64,000 nucleotides of DNA from NCBI RefSeq assembly GCF_025502585.1, contig NZ_CP106679.1, positions 1,283,001-1,347,000 of the forward strand. Reading direction: 5' to 3'. This document shows positions 34,038 to 46,051 of the stretch, piece after piece (the first letter of the stretch is position 1; each line of letters starts with the position of its first letter). A program made the position numbers and the translations under genes. The notes under the pieces were generated by a model. It saw nothing but the letters and a program-made list of their open reading frames with translations. It made no database searches and was not told the DNA's origin. Source of the DNA: Reichenbachiella agarivorans (GTDB lineage Bacteria; Bacteroidota; Bacteroidia; Cytophagales; Cyclobacteriaceae).

Positions 34038-34646
34038 TCATTCTAATATTAGGCTTTCGATTTTGCTGAAATCAGCTTGTGATTCATGAAAATCGTGGTA
34101 TTGCTTTAAGCCACCAAACCAGTCCAAAACTTCGGTTCTATTTAATTTGGATGGCATATTGGTCAAGTGACTTTTGTATGAGGAGTGGGGATACTCTTTG
34201 TAATTTCCAAATAAGCCATGTATTTGTGGGTAGAGATGAATGTATGCAATCAACTGAGAAAAATAGGCTTCTTCTTCCACCAGCTTTCGTTTGAAAGGCC
34301 TTTCGAAAAGTGCGCCTGTTCTTTTGAATTTCTTGTTAATGGCTTGTGTATAACTTTTCAACCAGTAGGACAAAGCATCACTGATATGTCTGTAGGCGGG
34401 CTGATCATTATCGGCTTTTATTTGTTGATGGATTCCTTGCTCCGACTTTACACGGGTCAATAGGTGAAAATGATTGGGTAACAAGCAGTACGCAAAAGTC
34501 TCTAAAAATGGATGAGCATATCTGGCATATTGGCGAAGGAAAAAGTGATAACTCTCTGTATCAAAAAAGACCTTTCCTTTGTTTACTCCTCGATTATAGA
34601 TGTGATAGTATTTTTCGGGATGTAGTTGGGTGTGGCGAATACCCAT
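34038..34646 (-). CDS. REP-associated tyrosine transposase (RAYT, Y1/HUH family)
   Basis: 202 residues from the ATG at 34646; a TTG at 34700 adds 18 poorly conserved residues. Family motifs: KYYHIYNRGVNKGKVFFD at the N-terminus, the metal-binding HUH in LPNHFHLLTRV, IHQ and WLKSYTQAINKKFKRTGALFERPFKRKLV in the centre, YIHLYPQIHGL, and the Ser/Tyr-rich YPHSSYKSHL. Such single-copy transposases process REP palindromes as single strands. Here palindromes sit just outside both ends of the gene, as expected for the RAYT/REP system. It lies next to the end of the thiolase gene. Activity cannot be judged. Confidence 0.92.
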   Translation of the reverse strand: MGIRHTQLHPEKYYHIYNRGVNKGKVFFDTESYHFFLRQYARYAHPFLETFAYCLLPNHFHLLTRVKSEQGIHQQIKADNDQPAYRHISDALSYWLKSYTQAINKKFKRTGALFERPFKRKLVEEEAYFSQLIAYIHLYPQIHGLFGNYKEYPHSSYKSHLTNMPSKLNRTEVLDWFGGLKQYHDFHESQADFSKIESLILE

Positions 34647-34715
34647 GGTTTTAGTTGGCTGGGTGCTACTAAAGATATCCAAAGAGAAAGGAAAATACAA
34701 TTGACCTTAAATGAA

Positions 34716-39293: not shown

Positions 39294-41105
39294 TTATTGG
39301 TAAACGTTATCGCCTCTTAGTGTTCTAAAACGCTTTCTCGCTTCCGCGACATAGATGCTGCCTGGGTAAGTGATCAGAAATGATTTGTAAAGCTCCATTG
39401 CAGTATCTGTATCATGCAAATATTCTTCAAATATTTTACCCTTCAGGAAAAGCGCATCATCGCCAAATATGTCTGTTTTGTAATCTGACTCTATCACATC
39501 CAGATTCAAGACGGCGTTTTCATACTCCCCAATCTCTAAGTATATATGAGCCAGTTGCCAGTGGATTTCGTCAGTCAACGAATGGTGAGGATAGGATTTC
39601 AACATCTGCAAATATTTGTCCTTGGCTTCCAGTGTTTTATTTTGAAAACGGAGCAAATCAATGTCAGCAAATTCCTTGAGTACAAAATCAGATGTATCCA
39701 AAACGGTATTGTTTTGAATCAACAAGCTCAATGCCATGGCATCATTGGCAATTTCTTTGGTCGTGGCGGTTTTGAGGATGTCCAAGTGACTCTTGGCCAA
39801 TTCAAAGTTTCCCAAGTAATAATTCAACTTTGCATTCTTGAATTTTGCCTCATAACCGATATCACTAGACTTGTTAGCTTTCTCCACTTGGGAATAAAGC
39901 AATGTTGCTTCCCATGGCTCATCGATCAATAAAAATATATCGCCAAGATCCAATTTGCTCAATGATTTAGATTTGAGATCCACTCTTGGCAGGGCTATAA
40001 TTTGATTAAGCATGGCGATCGCAGAATCTTTTTCATCCAGATAAAAAGCATGCAGCAGGGCTTTTTGTCTGAACGCTTCGATCGTCTCTGCATTCAATCC
40101 CACTTCGATAATCAATGACTCATAATCTTTGGTAAGCTGACGGATTGCCGTTTGATCTACAGGAAATACATTTTTCACTTTTTCTTGACGCGTTTTGATT
40201 AATTCACGCCTTGCTTGCAAATAGTATTGGCTTTCTGGCATACTTTGAATAATGTATTCAAATACCTCTTCTGCTTCAACATAACTTTTGTTGTCCAAAG
40301 CGATCATCCCAATATCCATCAAACGATAGCCATTTTCACGAAAACGCTTGGTTATTGCCTTGGCTTGAATAAAGGCTCCATGGAAATTCTTTTGCTGCAT
40401 AAAAGCCCAAATCAACAAGTCCGCATACATATCTGTACTAGGATCTCTCTGGATATTGTCCATGAGCGAATTTTGGAATTTTTGCATGTCCTCTTCGTTT
40501 TGAAGTAGGTTTTGGAGAATGTTCTTGACGTATCTCAAGTTTTGTGGTCTGAGCGAAGCGAAGACGAGATATTCATTCATCATCTTTTCTTTGTCTCCCA
40601 AAATACGATACGTATTGGCGAGCTCCAGAGCGTATTCCTGATGGTCGTTGCTAGACTTTCTTCCTTGCTGATAAGTCTGCAAAGCATATTCGGTCAATTG
40701 CTTGCTGATAAAATACTGCGCAGCAGTCCGCACCAAAAAACTGTTTTCTTTGATTTCATCTATGAGCTGAACGTATTTTTTGTCTGCTAGATCTTGGCGT
40801 TGCGTTGCGGTCAATAGGATTCCTTCATCTATTCTGTAGTAAACATTGGATGGATAATTCTTCAAAGCATTTTTCAAATACTTATCTGCAGTTTTGAAAT
40901 CATTGAGGGATAACAAGACATCAAAATAATTGTTGTGGATAGTTGGTATGTTTTCTCTGCGATTGGACAAATCATCATAGACATCCTTTGCTTTTTGAAA
41001 ATCACCATTAAGATAATATTCATTGGCAAGTTGAATTTTTTGATCGTCCTGCGCCACGAGGCTGAGCGGAATGATGATTGCTATTAGAGAGAGAAATAAT
41101 TTCAT
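39294..41105 (-). CDS. Exported tetratricopeptide-repeat protein
   Basis: About 603 residues from the ATG at 41105, which starts a signal peptide (MKLFLSLIAIIIPLSLVAQ); an ATG five codons earlier is also possible. The body is a chain of helical TPR-type repeats, for example LANEYYLNGDFQKAKDVYDDL, FDVLLSLNDFKTADKYLKNAL, IGMIALDNKSYVEAEEVFEYI, and near the end IHWQLAHIYLEIGEYENAVLNLDVIESDYKTDIFGDDALFLKGKIFEEYLHD. TPR proteins act as periplasmic scaffolds, and the last part resembles YbgF/CpoB-like repeats. Partners are unknown. Its 5' end borders the candidate replication origin. Confidence 0.85.
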   Translation of the reverse strand: MKLFLSLIAIIIPLSLVAQDDQKIQLANEYYLNGDFQKAKDVYDDLSNRRENIPTIHNNYFDVLLSLNDFKTADKYLKNALKNYPSNVYYRIDEGILLTATQRQDLADKKYVQLIDEIKENSFLVRTAAQYFISKQLTEYALQTYQQGRKSSNDHQEYALELANTYRILGDKEKMMNEYLVFASLRPQNLRYVKNILQNLLQNEEDMQKFQNSLMDNIQRDPSTDMYADLLIWAFMQQKNFHGAFIQAKAITKRFRENGYRLMDIGMIALDNKSYVEAEEVFEYIIQSMPESQYYLQARRELIKTRQEKVKNVFPVDQTAIRQLTKDYESLIIEVGLNAETIEAFRQKALLHAFYLDEKDSAIAMLNQIIALPRVDLKSKSLSKLDLGDIFLLIDEPWEATLLYSQVEKANKSSDIGYEAKFKNAKLNYYLGNFELAKSHLDILKTATTKEIANDAMALSLLIQNNTVLDTSDFVLKEFADIDLLRFQNKTLEAKDKYLQMLKSYPHHSLTDEIHWQLAHIYLEIGEYENAVLNLDVIESDYKTDIFGDDALFLKGKIFEEYLHDTDTAMELYKSFLITYPGSIYVAEARKRFRTLRGDNVYQ

Positions 41106-41497
41106 ATACGTTTTCCACATCTTTGACCGATCCTACAATATTAAAATAGATTATAAATAAACTATTATTATTTACTATCTGTGTAGATATGTGGATAAGT
41201 CTTTATGTTCTTTTGACTTGTTTGTAGATCGTGTATTAAAATTAATTTAAGGACAACTTATCTACATTCTAAGTTATTGATTTTTAGTTAGTCATATGGT
41301 TTTCCACAGTTTTTAGAACTATGTTGATTACTTTATACTGATGTGTGTTGTTGACCACAATTTGTTGATATATCTGAGTTACGGAAAGTTATTAGTTGGG
41401 GTATGAGTGACTTTGGTGTTAACTACTGTTTTGTCTGAATTTGTACACAGTCTCTGCGATCTATCTCAACGATTTATCCACAGTTATCCACATGGTT
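41106..41497. other. Candidate chromosomal replication origin (oriC): DnaA-box cluster and AT-rich segment
   Basis: A ~390-base AT-rich gap without genes. Perfect DnaA boxes TTATCCACA lie at 41474-41482 and 41484-41492 (plus strand) and 41190-41198 (minus strand). Close matches are TTTTCCACA at 41111-41119 and 41300-41308, TTATCTACA at 41258-41266 and TTGTACACA at 41441-41449. A ~37-base stretch at 41137-41173 has only two G/C and could be the unwinding element. In sampled 60-base lines the plus strand has more C than G to the left (39781: 8 G/14 C; 39901: 8/15; 40381: 8/14) and more G than C to the right (41881: 15/8; 42061: 15/7; 43561: 13/5), although genes on both sides are on the minus strand. 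Line 40501 (19/7) is an exception on the left. Confidence 0.78.
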
Positions 41498-43240
41498 TTA
41501 GAAGCTGATTAGAATGTTTTCAATCTCCCAATTGGCGCGAATATCAAATTCTTCTGGATAGAAGTATATGGGTTCAGGTTCCATTTGAAGGTTGAGATTG
41601 CCATGTGTCCAGGTTTGATCTTCATTTTTATCTATTAAAACTCTAAAGGTGTATTTTCCTGGTTTGACATAGTTGAAGATGAATTTGGTTGGATTTTTCT
41701 TCTGTGCTATTACCTTATAATCTTTATCTACTAGCTGTAGTGTATAGCTAGGATTGGTCGTCTCTACTTGTCCAGATACGATTCCGTAGTTTTCTGGATT
41801 TTTAAATTGATAGAATCTGGTTTGTTGTTCGGCTGTATCTAGATCGATGCTGATGAACGTACCTTTTTTGAATAGATAATATACTTGGTTGGTCTTGATC
41901 TTGGTGAGGTAGTTGACTTGTTTGACTTTCACTGTATCAATGGCACTGCTGTCTTGTGGAATATGAGTGCTGTCTGTAAGTAGGTTGAGAAGACTGTCTA
42001 CTTTGTGTTTGAAGAAATTCTTGTTGAGTTGATTACTAATGACCAGTTCGGTCATGTCTTCATTCCATTGAAGAATACTGTCAGGTATATTTTGTTTGTA
42101 AAGGGTGTCGTATTGCAGGATCATGCTATCTCTGTAGAACTCAGTGATGGGTTTGGTGAACCTGATAATCATGTTGAACTTTTCGTCGACATTACTCTGA
42201 TCTCTGGGCAACAGAGATGAATTGAATTTCTCAGGCTTTCTTTTAGATTCAGAGAATTGTACATAGACAGTATCTGACATGTGATTGTAAACCGTATCGG
42301 TGGTTTGGATGATGACAGCTAGGCTATCTTTTTCATATTGGTAAGCTGAGTCATAGTAGTACCTGAGTGTTGTCCTTTCTTTGATTAGGTTGCTCTTGGG
42401 AAGGGGTAGTTTACTCATTGAGTCTAGTTTCTTCATTTGATAGGATTGGATGTATTTGTTGTAGAGTACGTCAAAATACTGTCCTGTCTTTTTTGCTCTG
42501 ATCATTTTGAGATCATTTATGTTGAGCAACTGGATTGCTAGATCAATGTTTTCTTTGTTGCTGTTGAGATCAATAGAATCCTTTATGAATCCTTGTGTCT
42601 CTTCATCTGGTTGATTGGTCAGGTTGTTATTCTTGTCCTCGAATGCATAAATCTGGTAATAGGAGTTTTTGATGTTCTCTATTTTGTATGTGCCAGAGGT
42701 ATCTGTTTTGGCGAAGTACCTTGGTTTTCCTGTAAGTATATTGAGTGTGTCTGATACGTCGTATAATGTGACTGTCGCCTTGTCTACTTTTTTATTGTTG
42801 TAGAGGTTTCTGATGGTGCCTGAGATGCTAATCGAATCGATGTAGGGTCCTGTTGAGAATGCTAGGATGAAGTTTTCCACGGAGTTTTTTTCTGTGACAT
42901 CTACGACACCATCTGCAAAATTGAAAGTATAGGTGGTGCTGTCTTCAAAATCTTCTTCGAATTCAATAAACAATTCATTCTTCTTGATTCGATGTTTGTA
43001 TTTGTTTTCTGTGAATGGAGTGATGACAAGCTTCTGTTTTATTTTGGATGCATCGATTCTTTCATCAAACACAAAGTGAAATTCTTTGCTTTTGTAGTTA
43101 ATGCTTTTGTTGGCTGGAGTGCTTTCTATGAGTAGAGGGGGAATAGTATCTCTAGGTCCTCCAGTTGGTGTACCTTGATTGGCGCATGAGTAGATGTATA
43201 TAGCGACTAGACAGAGCAGGATGGGGAATAGACTTCTCAT
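41498..43240 (-). CDS. Ig-like (SbsA/Big_5) domain lipoprotein
   Basis: 580 residues with a lipoprotein signal (MRSLFPILLCLVAIYIYSC, Cys anchor) and the diagnostic start of the mature protein ANQGTPTGGPRDTIPPLLIES. An Ig-like domain follows (FHFVFDERIDASKIKQKLVITP, about 45-130), then a carboxypeptidase-regulatory-like domain (ISGTIRNLYNNKKVDKATVTLYD, about 135-215), then a long region without recognised domains. This lipoprotein is widespread and uncharacterised in Bacteroidetes. Its start overlaps the methyltransferase stop by four bases, and its 3' end runs up to the DnaA boxes. Confidence 0.88.
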   Translation of the reverse strand: MRSLFPILLCLVAIYIYSCANQGTPTGGPRDTIPPLLIESTPANKSINYKSKEFHFVFDERIDASKIKQKLVITPFTENKYKHRIKKNELFIEFEEDFEDSTTYTFNFADGVVDVTEKNSVENFILAFSTGPYIDSISISGTIRNLYNNKKVDKATVTLYDVSDTLNILTGKPRYFAKTDTSGTYKIENIKNSYYQIYAFEDKNNNLTNQPDEETQGFIKDSIDLNSNKENIDLAIQLLNINDLKMIRAKKTGQYFDVLYNKYIQSYQMKKLDSMSKLPLPKSNLIKERTTLRYYYDSAYQYEKDSLAVIIQTTDTVYNHMSDTVYVQFSESKRKPEKFNSSLLPRDQSNVDEKFNMIIRFTKPITEFYRDSMILQYDTLYKQNIPDSILQWNEDMTELVISNQLNKNFFKHKVDSLLNLLTDSTHIPQDSSAIDTVKVKQVNYLTKIKTNQVYYLFKKGTFISIDLDTAEQQTRFYQFKNPENYGIVSGQVETTNPSYTLQLVDKDYKVIAQKKNPTKFIFNYVKPGKYTFRVLIDKNEDQTWTHGNLNLQMEPEPIYFYPEEFDIRANWEIENILISF

Positions 43241-44121: not shown

Positions 44122-45984
44122 TTATCTAGCCATATATACCATTAGAACTGAAATGTCAGCAGGATTGACTCCACTGATTCTAGAGGCTTGGCCCAAATTG
44201 GTAGGTTGAATATTTGATAATTTTTCTTTTGCTTCTTTGGATAGAGCGGGTATTTCACGATAGTTGAATCCTGATGGTATCTTCTTGTTATCTAAATCAC
44301 CCATTCTGTCAGCCAGACTTTTTTCTTTCTCAATATAGGTTTCATATTTGGCAAGAATGGAAGCTTGTTGAATGACCTCTTGAGACAGAGATTTGGTTCT
44401 TTCTTGTATCTCAGGATGTAGCTTGATGATATCTTCTATTTCCAATTCTGGTCTACGTAAGAAGTTGATCAATGGTGCTTTCTCCTTGATTGTTGCCGAG
44501 TTTCGCTTTTCTAGAATTTGATTGACTTCTTCAGGTTTTACTTTAATAGTGTTGAGATCATTCAGGAGCTGTTCTGTTTGATTTACTTTTTGCTGTACTT
44601 TCTCTAGTCTATCGTCGGATGCTAATCCAAGTGTGTGTCCAATAGGTGTGAGTCTAATGTCCGCATTGTCTTGTCTGAGTAGGATTCTGAATTCAGCACG
44701 TGAGGTAAACATGCGATAGGGCTCATCCGTACCTTTGTTGATCAAATCATCTATTAATACTCCTATGTAGGCGTCTGATCTGTTGAGGATGAATTTGTCT
44801 TTGCCATGCACCTTGTTATGTGCATTGATTCCTGCCATGAGTCCTTGACTGGCAGCTTCTTCGTATCCTGTTGTCCCGTTGATCTGTCCTGCGAAGTATA
44901 ACCCTGATATTCGTTTGGTTTCCAAGGTTGCATCGAGCTGCGTAGGAGGAAAATAATCGTACTCAATGGCATATCCAGGTCTAAACATTTTGACTTGTTC
45001 GAACCCTGGAATTTTAGTGATGGCTTTGTACTGCACGTCCTCTGGTAAACTTGTAGAAAAGCCATTGACATATATCTCCACTGTGTTCCAACCTTCAGGT
45101 TCTACAAATATTTGATGCCTTTCTCTGTCTGCGAACCGATTGATTTTATCCTCTATAGATGGGCAATACCTTGGACCCAAACCTTTAATCCGCCCTGTGA
45201 ACATTGGAGATTTTTCAAACCCAGTTTTCAGAATTTCATGTACTTCACTGTTGGTATAGGTGATATGACAAGGTCTTTGTGTTGCAAGAGGCTTTGTGTC
45301 TGTGAAAGAGAATTTACCTGGTTCTTCATCTCCTGGCTGTTCTTCCATCACATTCCAATTAAGGGAACGACCATCTACTCTTGGAGGTGTTCCTGTTTTC
45401 ATTCTCCCTGCTTCAAACCCTAGTTCCACTAATTGTTCGGTTATGCCTGTTGCAGCTTTCTCACCTGTACGGCCTCCACCGAATCTTTTTTCACCAATAT
45501 GAATGATTCCATTGAGAAAGGTTCCATTGGTTAGCACCACGGATTTCCCCATGATTTCAATACCCATGGATGTTCTCACGCCTCTGACTTGATTGTTTTT
45601 GACGACCAGTCCACTTACCATTTCTTGCCAGAAATCTACATTTGGTGTTTGCTCAAGTGCTAATCTCCACTCTTCGGCAAATCTCATTCTGTCATTTTGA
45701 GTTCTTGGACTCCACATGGCAGGACCCTTAGATTTGTTGAGCATCCTAAATTGGATCATAGACTTATCAGAAATGATCCCTGAGTATCCCCCGAGTGCAT
45801 CTATCTCTCTAACTATTTGTCCTTTGGCTACACCGCCCATGGCTGGGTTGCATGACATTTGAGCAATGGTATTCATATTCATGGTGACCAACATGACTTT
45901 GGAGCCCATGTTGGCAGCAGCAGCAGCGGCTTCACAGCCGGCATGCCCAGCACCTACCACGATCACATCGTATTCTGGAAACAT
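44122..45984 (-). CDS. mnmG: tRNA uridine-5-carboxymethylaminomethyl modification enzyme MnmG
   Basis: 620 residues, normal length. FAD motif [28 protein letters not shown], then [46 protein letters not shown], the signature RTGTPPR-like [33 protein letters not shown], and [20 protein letters not shown]. The C-terminal MnmE-binding helices end with GINPADIS-like [15 protein letters not shown]. With MnmE it modifies the wobble uridine of several tRNAs. mnmG (gidA) is often near the replication origin, as here (about 3 kb from the DnaA-box cluster). Two parS-like sites lie directly upstream. Confidence 0.97.
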
Positions 45985-45999
45985 AACGTTTATTAATAA

Positions 46000-46051
46000 T
46001 GTTCCACGTGAAACCTTTTGTGTTTTGTTGCAAAGTGTTCCACGTGGAGCA
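46000..46051. other. Two parS-like palindromes (candidate ParB binding sites)
   Basis: TGTTCCACGTGAAACC (46000-46015) matches the bacterial parS consensus TGTTnCACGTGAAACA at all specified positions but the last. TGTTCCACGTGGAGCA (46036-46051) is a second, weaker copy with two further differences. They are 36 bases apart in the 81-base gap between ybeY and mnmG. parS sites cluster near origins and recruit ParB for chromosome segregation, which agrees with the DnaA-box cluster 4.5 kb away. Confidence 0.75.

What the first reader, a model, noticed from the sequence alone, without database searches (positions are those of the whole stretch)
41106..41497. Candidate oriC: DnaA-box cluster in an AT-rich gap
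Three perfect TTATCCACA boxes (41190 on the minus strand; 41474 and 41484 in tandem on the plus strand) and at least four one-mismatch boxes occur within ~390 bases between two same-strand genes. There is also a ~37-base segment with only two G/C. mnmG, a frequent origin neighbour, is 3 kb away and parS-like sites are 4.5 kb away. In most sampled lines G/C bias flips across the gap even though genes on both sides share orientation. dnaA itself is not in the window, which is common outside the classic dnaA-linked origins.
Basis: partly seen in the sequence, partly recalled or inferred. Interest (0 to 1): 0.85.

Follow-up and report, generated by a model that had tools for sequence, protein, structure and literature searches.

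The report
Chromosome replication origin of a marine bacterium
This short non-coding stretch is very probably where the cell starts copying its chromosome; most relatives examined keep the same arrangement, and a second conserved DnaA-box cluster elsewhere in the genome may be a separate control site for the starter protein.

Summary
The gap at 41106-41497 is very probably oriC of this Reichenbachiella-like bacterium. It holds 3 perfect and 3 (not 4) one-mismatch DnaA boxes; 2000 shuffles gave at most 1 and 3 boxes in all. Both refuting tests look positive at first: the raw local skew minimum is 187 kb away, and a denser perfect-box cluster lies at 1.9445 Mb. An inverted ~70 kb block explains the first (inferred from two relatives), and in two relatives skew changes around their own gap. 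Skew does not change sign at the other cluster. In relatives the gap holds a box cluster in 70 of 73 covering loci; a DnaA box, weaker tandem box and TAATAA-type core recurs in 67 of 71 gaps; an IHF-like palindrome lies 83-95 bp from it in 26 of 67; parS-like sites precede mnmG in 72 of 80. It is a new member of a known kind. The novel lead is the second cluster: three boxes at near-fixed spacing, with that palindrome in 25 of 30 copies outside the genus but 1 of 8 within it, not in this genome's copy.

The parts
41106..41497 (.). oriC: non-coding gap between the TPR gene and the Ig-like gene
   Evidence: box cluster; box cluster in the same gap in 70 of 73 covering relatives' loci; skew
41190..41198 (-). 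Core DnaA box TTATCCACA next to the presumed unwinding region
   Evidence: perfect box; core score 21 of 22
41182..41190 (-). Second, weaker tandem box (two mismatches) of the core
   Evidence: second-box position is part of the core scored
41137..41177 (-). AT-rich presumed unwinding region (DUE) beginning with trio-like TAGTAAATAATAATAG
   Evidence: only 37-mer with two G/C in the window; partly invariant in 8 genus sequences
41111..41119 (+). DnaA box TTTTCCACA on the TPR-gene side of the DUE
41258..41266 (+). DnaA box TTATCTACA, 68 bp from the core box
   Evidence: three-box geometry in 23 of 71 gaps at one mismatch, 44 of 71 at two, 0 in 20 rounds of shuffles
41270..41294 (-). IHF/HU-like palindrome (12 of 14 match to TAAN4YTGAN3TCARN4TTA)
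   Evidence: in relatives 83-95 bp from the core box. A score of 12 or more also occurs 32 times in 0.98 Mb of this genome, so the position, not the motif, is informative
41300..41308 (+). DnaA box TTTTCCACA
41474..41482 (+). Tandem DnaA box 1, TTATCCACA
41484..41492 (+). Tandem DnaA box 2, TTATCCACA
46000..46015 (.). parS-like site (2 mismatches to TGTTCCACGTGGAACA)
46036..46051 (.). parS-like site (1 mismatch)
44122..45984 (-). mnmG (gidA), conserved origin neighbour
   Evidence: Pfam GIDA 9.8e-164
41498..43240 (-). Flanking gene, bacterial Ig-like domain (Big_5) protein
39294..41105 (-). Flanking gene, TPR-repeat protein (the longest ORF starts at an ATG at 41120, which overlaps the 41111 box; the in-frame ATG at 41105 lies outside it)

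Best explanation
The gap is the chromosomal replication origin. DnaA binds the box array. The core box at 41190 and its weaker tandem neighbour direct a DnaA filament across the adjacent trio-like, AT-rich stretch (41177 down to 41137), which melts and takes up the helicase. An IHF/HU-type protein bends the DNA at the palindrome 84 bp away, bringing the array and the core together. The parS-like pair 4.5 kb away is the ParB segregation site. Shown here: box clustering, local skew flip, conservation of position, core and (in part of the relatives) palindrome. Inferred: DnaA binding, melting site, bending, parS function.
For: Box cluster far above shuffles. The skew minimum within the window is at 1,323,449 (window 40,449), 0.66 kb from the gap. 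In this genome a parS-like pair lies 4.5 kb away and one ParB_N protein is encoded. The best box cluster of the whole locus lies 3.3-5.4 kb from the mnmG start in 70 of 73 covering loci; the gap test gave again 70 of 73, all 70 with same-strand flanks. Averaged skew over the 70 is negative in the 2 kb before the gap and positive in every 500-bp bin from +0.5 kb to +7 kb. G001 skew is negative at 1.200-1.220 Mb and positive at 1.240-1.260 Mb with mnmG at 1.231 Mb; G005 third-position skew of minus-strand genes changes from -0.108 (291-311 kb) to +0.132 (320-340 kb) with mnmG at 314 kb. Core >=18 of 22 in 67 of 71 gaps against about 0.2 per 71 in shuffles and 2 of 71 on the other strand; no hit >=19 in 2.0 million bases of sampled background, both strands counted, after a prefilter. 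Palindrome >=12 of 14 only in the 60-110 bp window: 26 of 67, against 0 of 67, 0 of 67 and 0 of 65 in three other windows. Two or more parS-like sites upstream of mnmG in 67 of 80 loci. The sampled cumulative skew is highest at the 3.36 Mb stretch; the point opposite 1.324 Mb is 3.56 Mb.
Against: Raw cumulative skew over 1.18-1.55 Mb is lowest at 1,510,918, not at the gap; it returns to the gap only if the sign of the ~1346-1418 kb block is flipped. The inversion rests on two relatives, G002 and G007; G001, G003, G004 and G005 have other arrangements. A second negative block, 1470-1490 kb, is unexplained. The densest perfect-box cluster is elsewhere. The averaged skew of relatives is positive again from 3 to 7.5 kb on the mnmG side in most bins, highest in mnmG itself. 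One G001 sample at 1.160 Mb is slightly positive, and plain skew in G005 near the gap is weak. The parS pattern had no more matches in the genome than its reversed control (10 against 15). The published loose BUS rule is met in 63 of 71 gaps but also in 41 of 71 on the other strand. Three of 73 covering loci lack the gap cluster in each test (L117, L137, L164; L117, L136, L137). The 80 loci are the best 80 of 449 confirmed relatives, not a random sample. The core was written. No wet-lab data.
Confidence: 0.93

Rival explanations
1. The true origin is the other cluster at 1,944,554-1,944,846 (beside a ClC channel gene), and the gap is a regulatory DnaA site.
For: Four perfect boxes in 293 bp, the densest run of perfect boxes in the genome; conserved in relatives with near-fixed spacing.
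Against: Skew is positive on both sides there (0.118, 0.086, 0.128 at 1.920, 1.935, 1.980 Mb). In G001 and G005 skew changes at the mnmG gap while the clc locus is about 0.89 and 0.76 Mb away. No parS-like match nearer than 2.146 Mb.
Confidence: 0.03
2. The gap is not an origin but a DnaA-regulated promoter of the TPR gene, or a titration site.
For: It lies directly 5' of the TPR gene and one box overlaps that gene's upstream ATG.
Against: A promoter does not predict the skew change, the parS-like pair, or the AT-rich trio-like core conserved across the relatives examined.
Confidence: 0.03
3. The origin is near 1.51 Mb, at the raw skew minimum.
For: Raw cumulative minimum over the sampled 1.18-1.55 Mb.
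Against: The skew changes sharply at the gap first; the negative block in between matches a block inverted relative to G002 and G007. No perfect DnaA box within 38 kb of 1.511 Mb and no parS-like match between 1.33 and 2.14 Mb.
Confidence: 0.01

Closest known systems
E. coli oriC (between gidA/mnmG and mioC)
   Same: mnmG near the origin, dnaA elsewhere; DnaA boxes, an AT-rich unwinding region and an IHF-type site at set spacing (E. coli details recalled, except the gidA-mioC placement, seen in a passage of PMC10225481).
   Different: Other flanking genes (Ig-like and TPR genes), another box layout, parS-like sites next to mnmG; no sequence homology is claimed.
BUS (basal unwinding system) of Bacillus subtilis oriC, PMC8287927 (passages seen)
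   Same: Strong box, weaker tandem box, short spacer, then trinucleotide repeats with 5'-TAG (3'-GAT) nearest the box; 12 bp from box to first trio here, inside the reported 10-13 bp peak.
   Different: The trio run is interrupted by one base here (TAGTAA A TAATAATAG), and many relatives show only TAATAA before the run breaks; dnaA is not adjacent.
E. coli datA / DARS2 (compared with the second cluster only), PMC10950094 and PMC4585315 (passages seen)
   Same: Non-coding locus away from oriC with three key DnaA boxes and, in most copies outside the genus, an IHF-like site between them; spacing kept.
   Different: Different order and spacing, different phylum; the IHF-like palindrome is weak or missing in 7 of 8 genus copies, this genome's included; Fis sites not looked for; no activity tested.

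Membership tests
Bacterial chromosomal origin (DnaA-dependent oriC) | Cluster of DnaA boxes beyond chance in a non-coding region | tested here: met
Bacterial chromosomal origin (DnaA-dependent oriC) | AT-rich region next to a strong box | tested here: met
   that it melts was not tested
Bacterial chromosomal origin (DnaA-dependent oriC) | GC-skew switch at the site | tested here: met
   locally and in G001, G005; the raw regional minimum is displaced and needs the inversion correction
Bacterial chromosomal origin (DnaA-dependent oriC) | Position and core kept in relatives | tested here: met
   70 of 73 covering loci, 67 of 71 gaps
Bacterial chromosomal origin (DnaA-dependent oriC) | Replication starts here in vivo; DnaA binds | not testable with these tools
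   needs read depth, ChIP or a minichromosome
BUS | DnaA box, spacer up to 16 bp, at least three NAN trios | tested here: inconclusive
   rule met in 63 of 71 gaps but also in 41 of 71 on the opposite strand
BUS | Tandem boxes, the one farther from the trios stronger, trio-like repeats next to the pair | tested here: met
   window sequence; fixed-position core in 67 of 71 gaps, a core defined after viewing these gaps
parS centromere | parS-like palindromes near oriC and a ParB in the genome | tested here: met
   ParB binding not testable
datA/DARS (second cluster) | Three DnaA boxes at kept spacing, apart from oriC | tested here: met
datA/DARS (second cluster) | IHF-type site between the boxes | tested here: inconclusive
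   palindrome >=12 of 14 in 25 of 30 copies outside the genus, 1 of 8 in the genus, score 9 and off position in this genome
datA/DARS (second cluster) | Changes the nucleotide state of DnaA | not testable with these tools
   needs biochemistry

The most novel reading that the evidence does not exclude
Cytophagales carry a two-site DnaA control system: the mnmG-linked oriC and a separate conserved locus beside a ClC-channel gene (here 1,944,554-1,944,846). That locus has three DnaA boxes in near-fixed geometry (box, 65-69 bp, inverted box, 10-11 bp, inverted box) and, in most copies outside Reichenbachiella, the same IHF/HU-like palindrome as many of the oriC gaps at a fixed place in the spacer. 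It would work like E. coli datA or DARS2, assembling DnaA to inactivate, reactivate or titrate it: an independent or ancient counterpart of datA/DARS in another phylum. (Odds lowered from 0.5 to 0.45 after one search showed the palindrome weak in this genome's own copy.)
Probability: 0.45. Interest if true: 0.75.

Novelty: new member of a known kind. Interest (0 to 1): 0.5.

Why it matters
It gives a position, to a few hundred bases, and a core signature for the origin of a group of environmental Bacteroidota; in this genome the origin is not next to dnaA. That lets draft genomes be oriented, minichromosomes be built in laboratory strains, and the unwinding rule be tested outside the usual models. 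If the second locus controls DnaA, the datA/DARS type of control would not be special to E. coli and its kin.

Tried and rejected
Rfam on the window and on seven loci with the second cluster, and tRNA scans of the window and of 20 loci, found nothing, so neither cluster is part of a known RNA gene at those thresholds.

The idea that the second cluster is a redoxin promoter was dropped. By eye, four of its 18 clc loci have no redoxin gene within 1.5 kb (L208, L215, L218, L219), and 19 of the 20 pattern-found loci show clc but no redoxin hit in the ~3.1 kb held. A promoter role in some genomes is not excluded.

dnaA-linked origin rejected: seven scattered one-mismatch boxes and no perfect one in the 14 kb around dnaA.

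A forward-only IHF consensus was first tested on the second cluster (14 of 38 spacers, 16 of 38 reverse) and replaced by the palindrome. The palindrome was thus chosen after seeing those sequences; the oriC gaps were a separate test of it (27 of 71 at >=12 against about 2 in shuffles; position). The box core was written after viewing, so its 67 of 71 partly describes the set that suggested it; L285-L296 (10 of 12 at >=19, scanned over 4.5-6 kb) and the background scan are fairer checks, although L285-L288 had been seen. A tight IHF-next-to-box pattern in oriC gaps gave only 8 and 3 of 71.

Literature: in searches (lists partly capped; one search found no paper) I saw no title or abstract start describing a Cytophagales oriC or a datA/DARS-like locus in Bacteroidota. 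Listed but not opened: PMC8994065 (Elizabethkingia, mentions oriC and DnaA boxes) and PMC4755523 (Prevotella). Passages only were seen of PMC8287927, PMC10950094, PMC4585315, PMC10225481, PMC6323995 and PMC2768785; the others only as listings. The lineage table of indicator genes of Ori-Finder and the DoriC entries were not seen and may already list mnmG-linked origins for this group.

Full report
Observation. The gap lies between a TPR gene (39294-41105 or 41120) and a Big_5 (Ig-like) gene (41498-43240), both on the minus strand. In 2000 dinucleotide shuffles the maxima were 1 perfect box and 3 boxes in all. The stretch 41137-41174 is the only 37-mer run with two G/C in the window. TTATCCACA itself is not enriched genome-wide: 44 places against 52 for the reversed word.

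Genome. The window is part of a single 4,474,154-base contig. The nearest named relatives by MnmG are Reichenbachiella agariperforans (90%), R. faecimaris (86%) and R. versicolor (84%). dnaA is at 4,276,795; the 14 kb around it have no perfect box. A parS pattern with up to two mismatches gave 10 matches, no more than its reversed control (15); but the only one-mismatch match and the only neighbouring pair lie at window 46000 and 46036, just upstream of mnmG. One ParB_N protein is encoded, at 3.63 Mb.

Skew. About 1.0 Mb was fetched: 75 stretches over the whole genome and 13 more for 1.18-1.55 Mb, besides the window. The cumulative sum over the sampled stretches is lowest at 1.313 Mb (-2.11), nearly as low at 1.380 Mb (-2.10), and highest at 3.36 Mb. 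Within the window the minimum is at 40,449, 0.66 kb from the gap. Third-position skew of minus-strand genes jumps from -0.02 in the TPR gene to +0.52 in the Ig-like gene. However, 1346-1430 kb and 1470-1490 kb run negative again, so the raw minimum of 1.18-1.55 Mb is at 1,510,918.

Why the minimum is displaced. Two marker genes in or near the negative block were placed in relatives. With mnmG set to the minus strand, G002 and G007 have marker A on the minus strand at about +82 and +86 kb, and marker B on the minus strand at about +95 and +99 kb. The window's genome has A on the plus strand at +22.6 kb and B on the minus strand at +97 kb. A is thus flipped and moved while B stays, as expected for inversion of about 1346-1418 kb. 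Flipping the sign of that block returns the minimum to 1,323,449 for all three block ends tried. Caveats: G004 has both markers on the plus strand at about +75 (A) and +65 (B) kb; G003 and G005 have B about 157 kb on the other side of mnmG; G001 has B at +118 kb; A has no full-length match in G001 or G003 and lies at 1.26 Mb in G005. So the region is often rearranged. The 1470-1490 kb block was not tested.

Relatives' skew. In G001 skew is negative at 1.200-1.220 Mb and positive at 1.240-1.260 Mb, with mnmG at 1.231 Mb; one earlier sample, at 1.160 Mb, is slightly positive (+0.022). In G005 third-position skew of minus-strand genes goes from -0.108 (291-311 kb) to +0.132 (320-340 kb), with mnmG at 314 kb; plain skew there is weak. 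Averaged over 70 relatives' loci, skew is negative in the 2 kb before the gap and positive in all bins from +0.5 to +7 kb, but it is also positive in mnmG and in most bins to 7.5 kb on that side.

Conservation. 449 relatives of MnmG were confirmed and the tool kept the best 80. Seventy-three of the 80 cover 5.4 kb from the mnmG start. In 70 of 73 a non-coding gap holds at least three boxes (one mismatch or fewer), and all 70 have same-strand flanks (exceptions L117, L137, L164). In 70 of 73 the best box cluster of the whole locus lies 3.3-5.4 kb from the mnmG start (exceptions L117, L136, L137). parS-like sites (two mismatches or fewer) lie within 300 bp upstream of mnmG in 72 of 80 loci, and two or more in 67 of 80, against 8 sites in the other 1.58 Mb of the same loci.

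Anatomy. Reading the minus strand from 41198 down, the core is TTATCCACA, a weaker tandem box, then TAGTAAATAATAATAG running into the AT-rich stretch. Scored as box, second box at +10, 1-6 bp and TA(A/G)TA(A/G), it reaches 18 of 22 in 67 of 71 gaps (the window and 70 relatives), with spacer 3 or 4 in 66 of the 67. Shuffles give about 0.2 per 71, the opposite strand 2 of 71, and 2.0 million bases of sampled background (both strands, with a prefilter) no hit at 19 or more. Of twelve further loci 10 reach 19 or more. This is the layout of the published BUS: strong box, weaker tandem box, short spacer, trios (PMC8287927, passages). The published rule alone is loose: 63 of 71 forward, but 41 of 71 on the reverse strand. 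A geometry of three boxes ('<', 65-69 bp, '>', 70-84 bp, '<') occurs in 23 of 71 gaps at one mismatch and 44 of 71 at two, and in none of 20 rounds of shuffles.

Bending site. A palindrome TAAN4YTGAN3TCARN4TTA was noticed in the second cluster and then tested on the oriC gaps: 27 of 71 score at least 12 of 14, against about 2 in shuffles. Of the 67 gaps with a core, 26 score at least 12, all with the centre 83-95 bp from the core box; three other 50-bp windows give 0 of 67, 0 of 67 and 0 of 65. The window scores 12. Scores of 12 or more also occur 32 times in 0.98 Mb of this genome, so only the fixed position is telling. Half of it resembles the IHF consensus WATCARN4TTR (recalled, from no call). 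The genome has one clear HU/IHF-family protein and seven weak matches. Which protein binds is unknown.

Second cluster. The densest run of perfect boxes is at 1,944,554-1,944,846, 3' of a ClC-type channel gene. Skew does not change sign there. Of the 24 clc-search loci (L201-L224), 18 have at least three boxes close together beside clc. The three-box geometry matched in 38 of 42 loci tried by script, 18 of 22 from the clc search and 20 that had been found by such a pattern. The strict pattern is present in 37 of 390 Cytophagales genomes: 33 of 74 of the same family and 4 of 316 others, counted by hand from the table; the reversed control has none in 390. The palindrome scores at least 12 of 14 in 26 of 38 spacers, against about 0.15 of 38 in shuffles. 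Split by origin it is 25 of 30 outside the genus (8 of 10 and 17 of 20) but 1 of 8 in Reichenbachiella, and this genome's copy scores 9 at another place. clc adjoins the element in 20 of 20 of L265-L284; L170 (G008) has a similar box group beside the redoxins instead. G019's best clc locus lacks boxes, and G024 has no clc hit. The layout resembles datA, whose minimal region has one IHF site and essential boxes 2, 3 and 7 (PMC10950094, passages) and whose box-IHF spacing matters (PMC4585315, passages). It is resemblance of layout, not proof of function, and it is weaker in this genome than in its relatives.

Verdict. The finding is right: this is oriC, at 0.93 confidence without experiment. As an object it is a new member of a known kind. 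The more surprising part is the second locus, whose odds were lowered from 0.5 to 0.45.

Noticed in passing
L002:9554-9846 (G000 1,944,554-1,944,846): Second conserved DnaA-box element beside a ClC channel gene: three boxes at near-fixed spacing, with an IHF-like palindrome in most copies outside the genus but not in this one.
   Followed up: partly
G000 1346-1418 kb (window end; L082-L085): Block apparently inverted relative to two Reichenbachiella relatives, with reversed GC skew.
   Followed up: partly
G000 1470-1490 kb (L087): Another negative-skew block in the right arm, not explained.
   Followed up: no
L117 (Xanthocytophaga flavus), 9.9-10.2 kb from the mnmG start: 14 DnaA boxes (6 perfect) in about 350 bp at a different place from the usual gap; possibly a relocated or enlarged origin.
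   Followed up: no
window 34038-34700 (-): ORF that looks like a REP-associated tyrosine transposase (by eye, no search).
   Followed up: no
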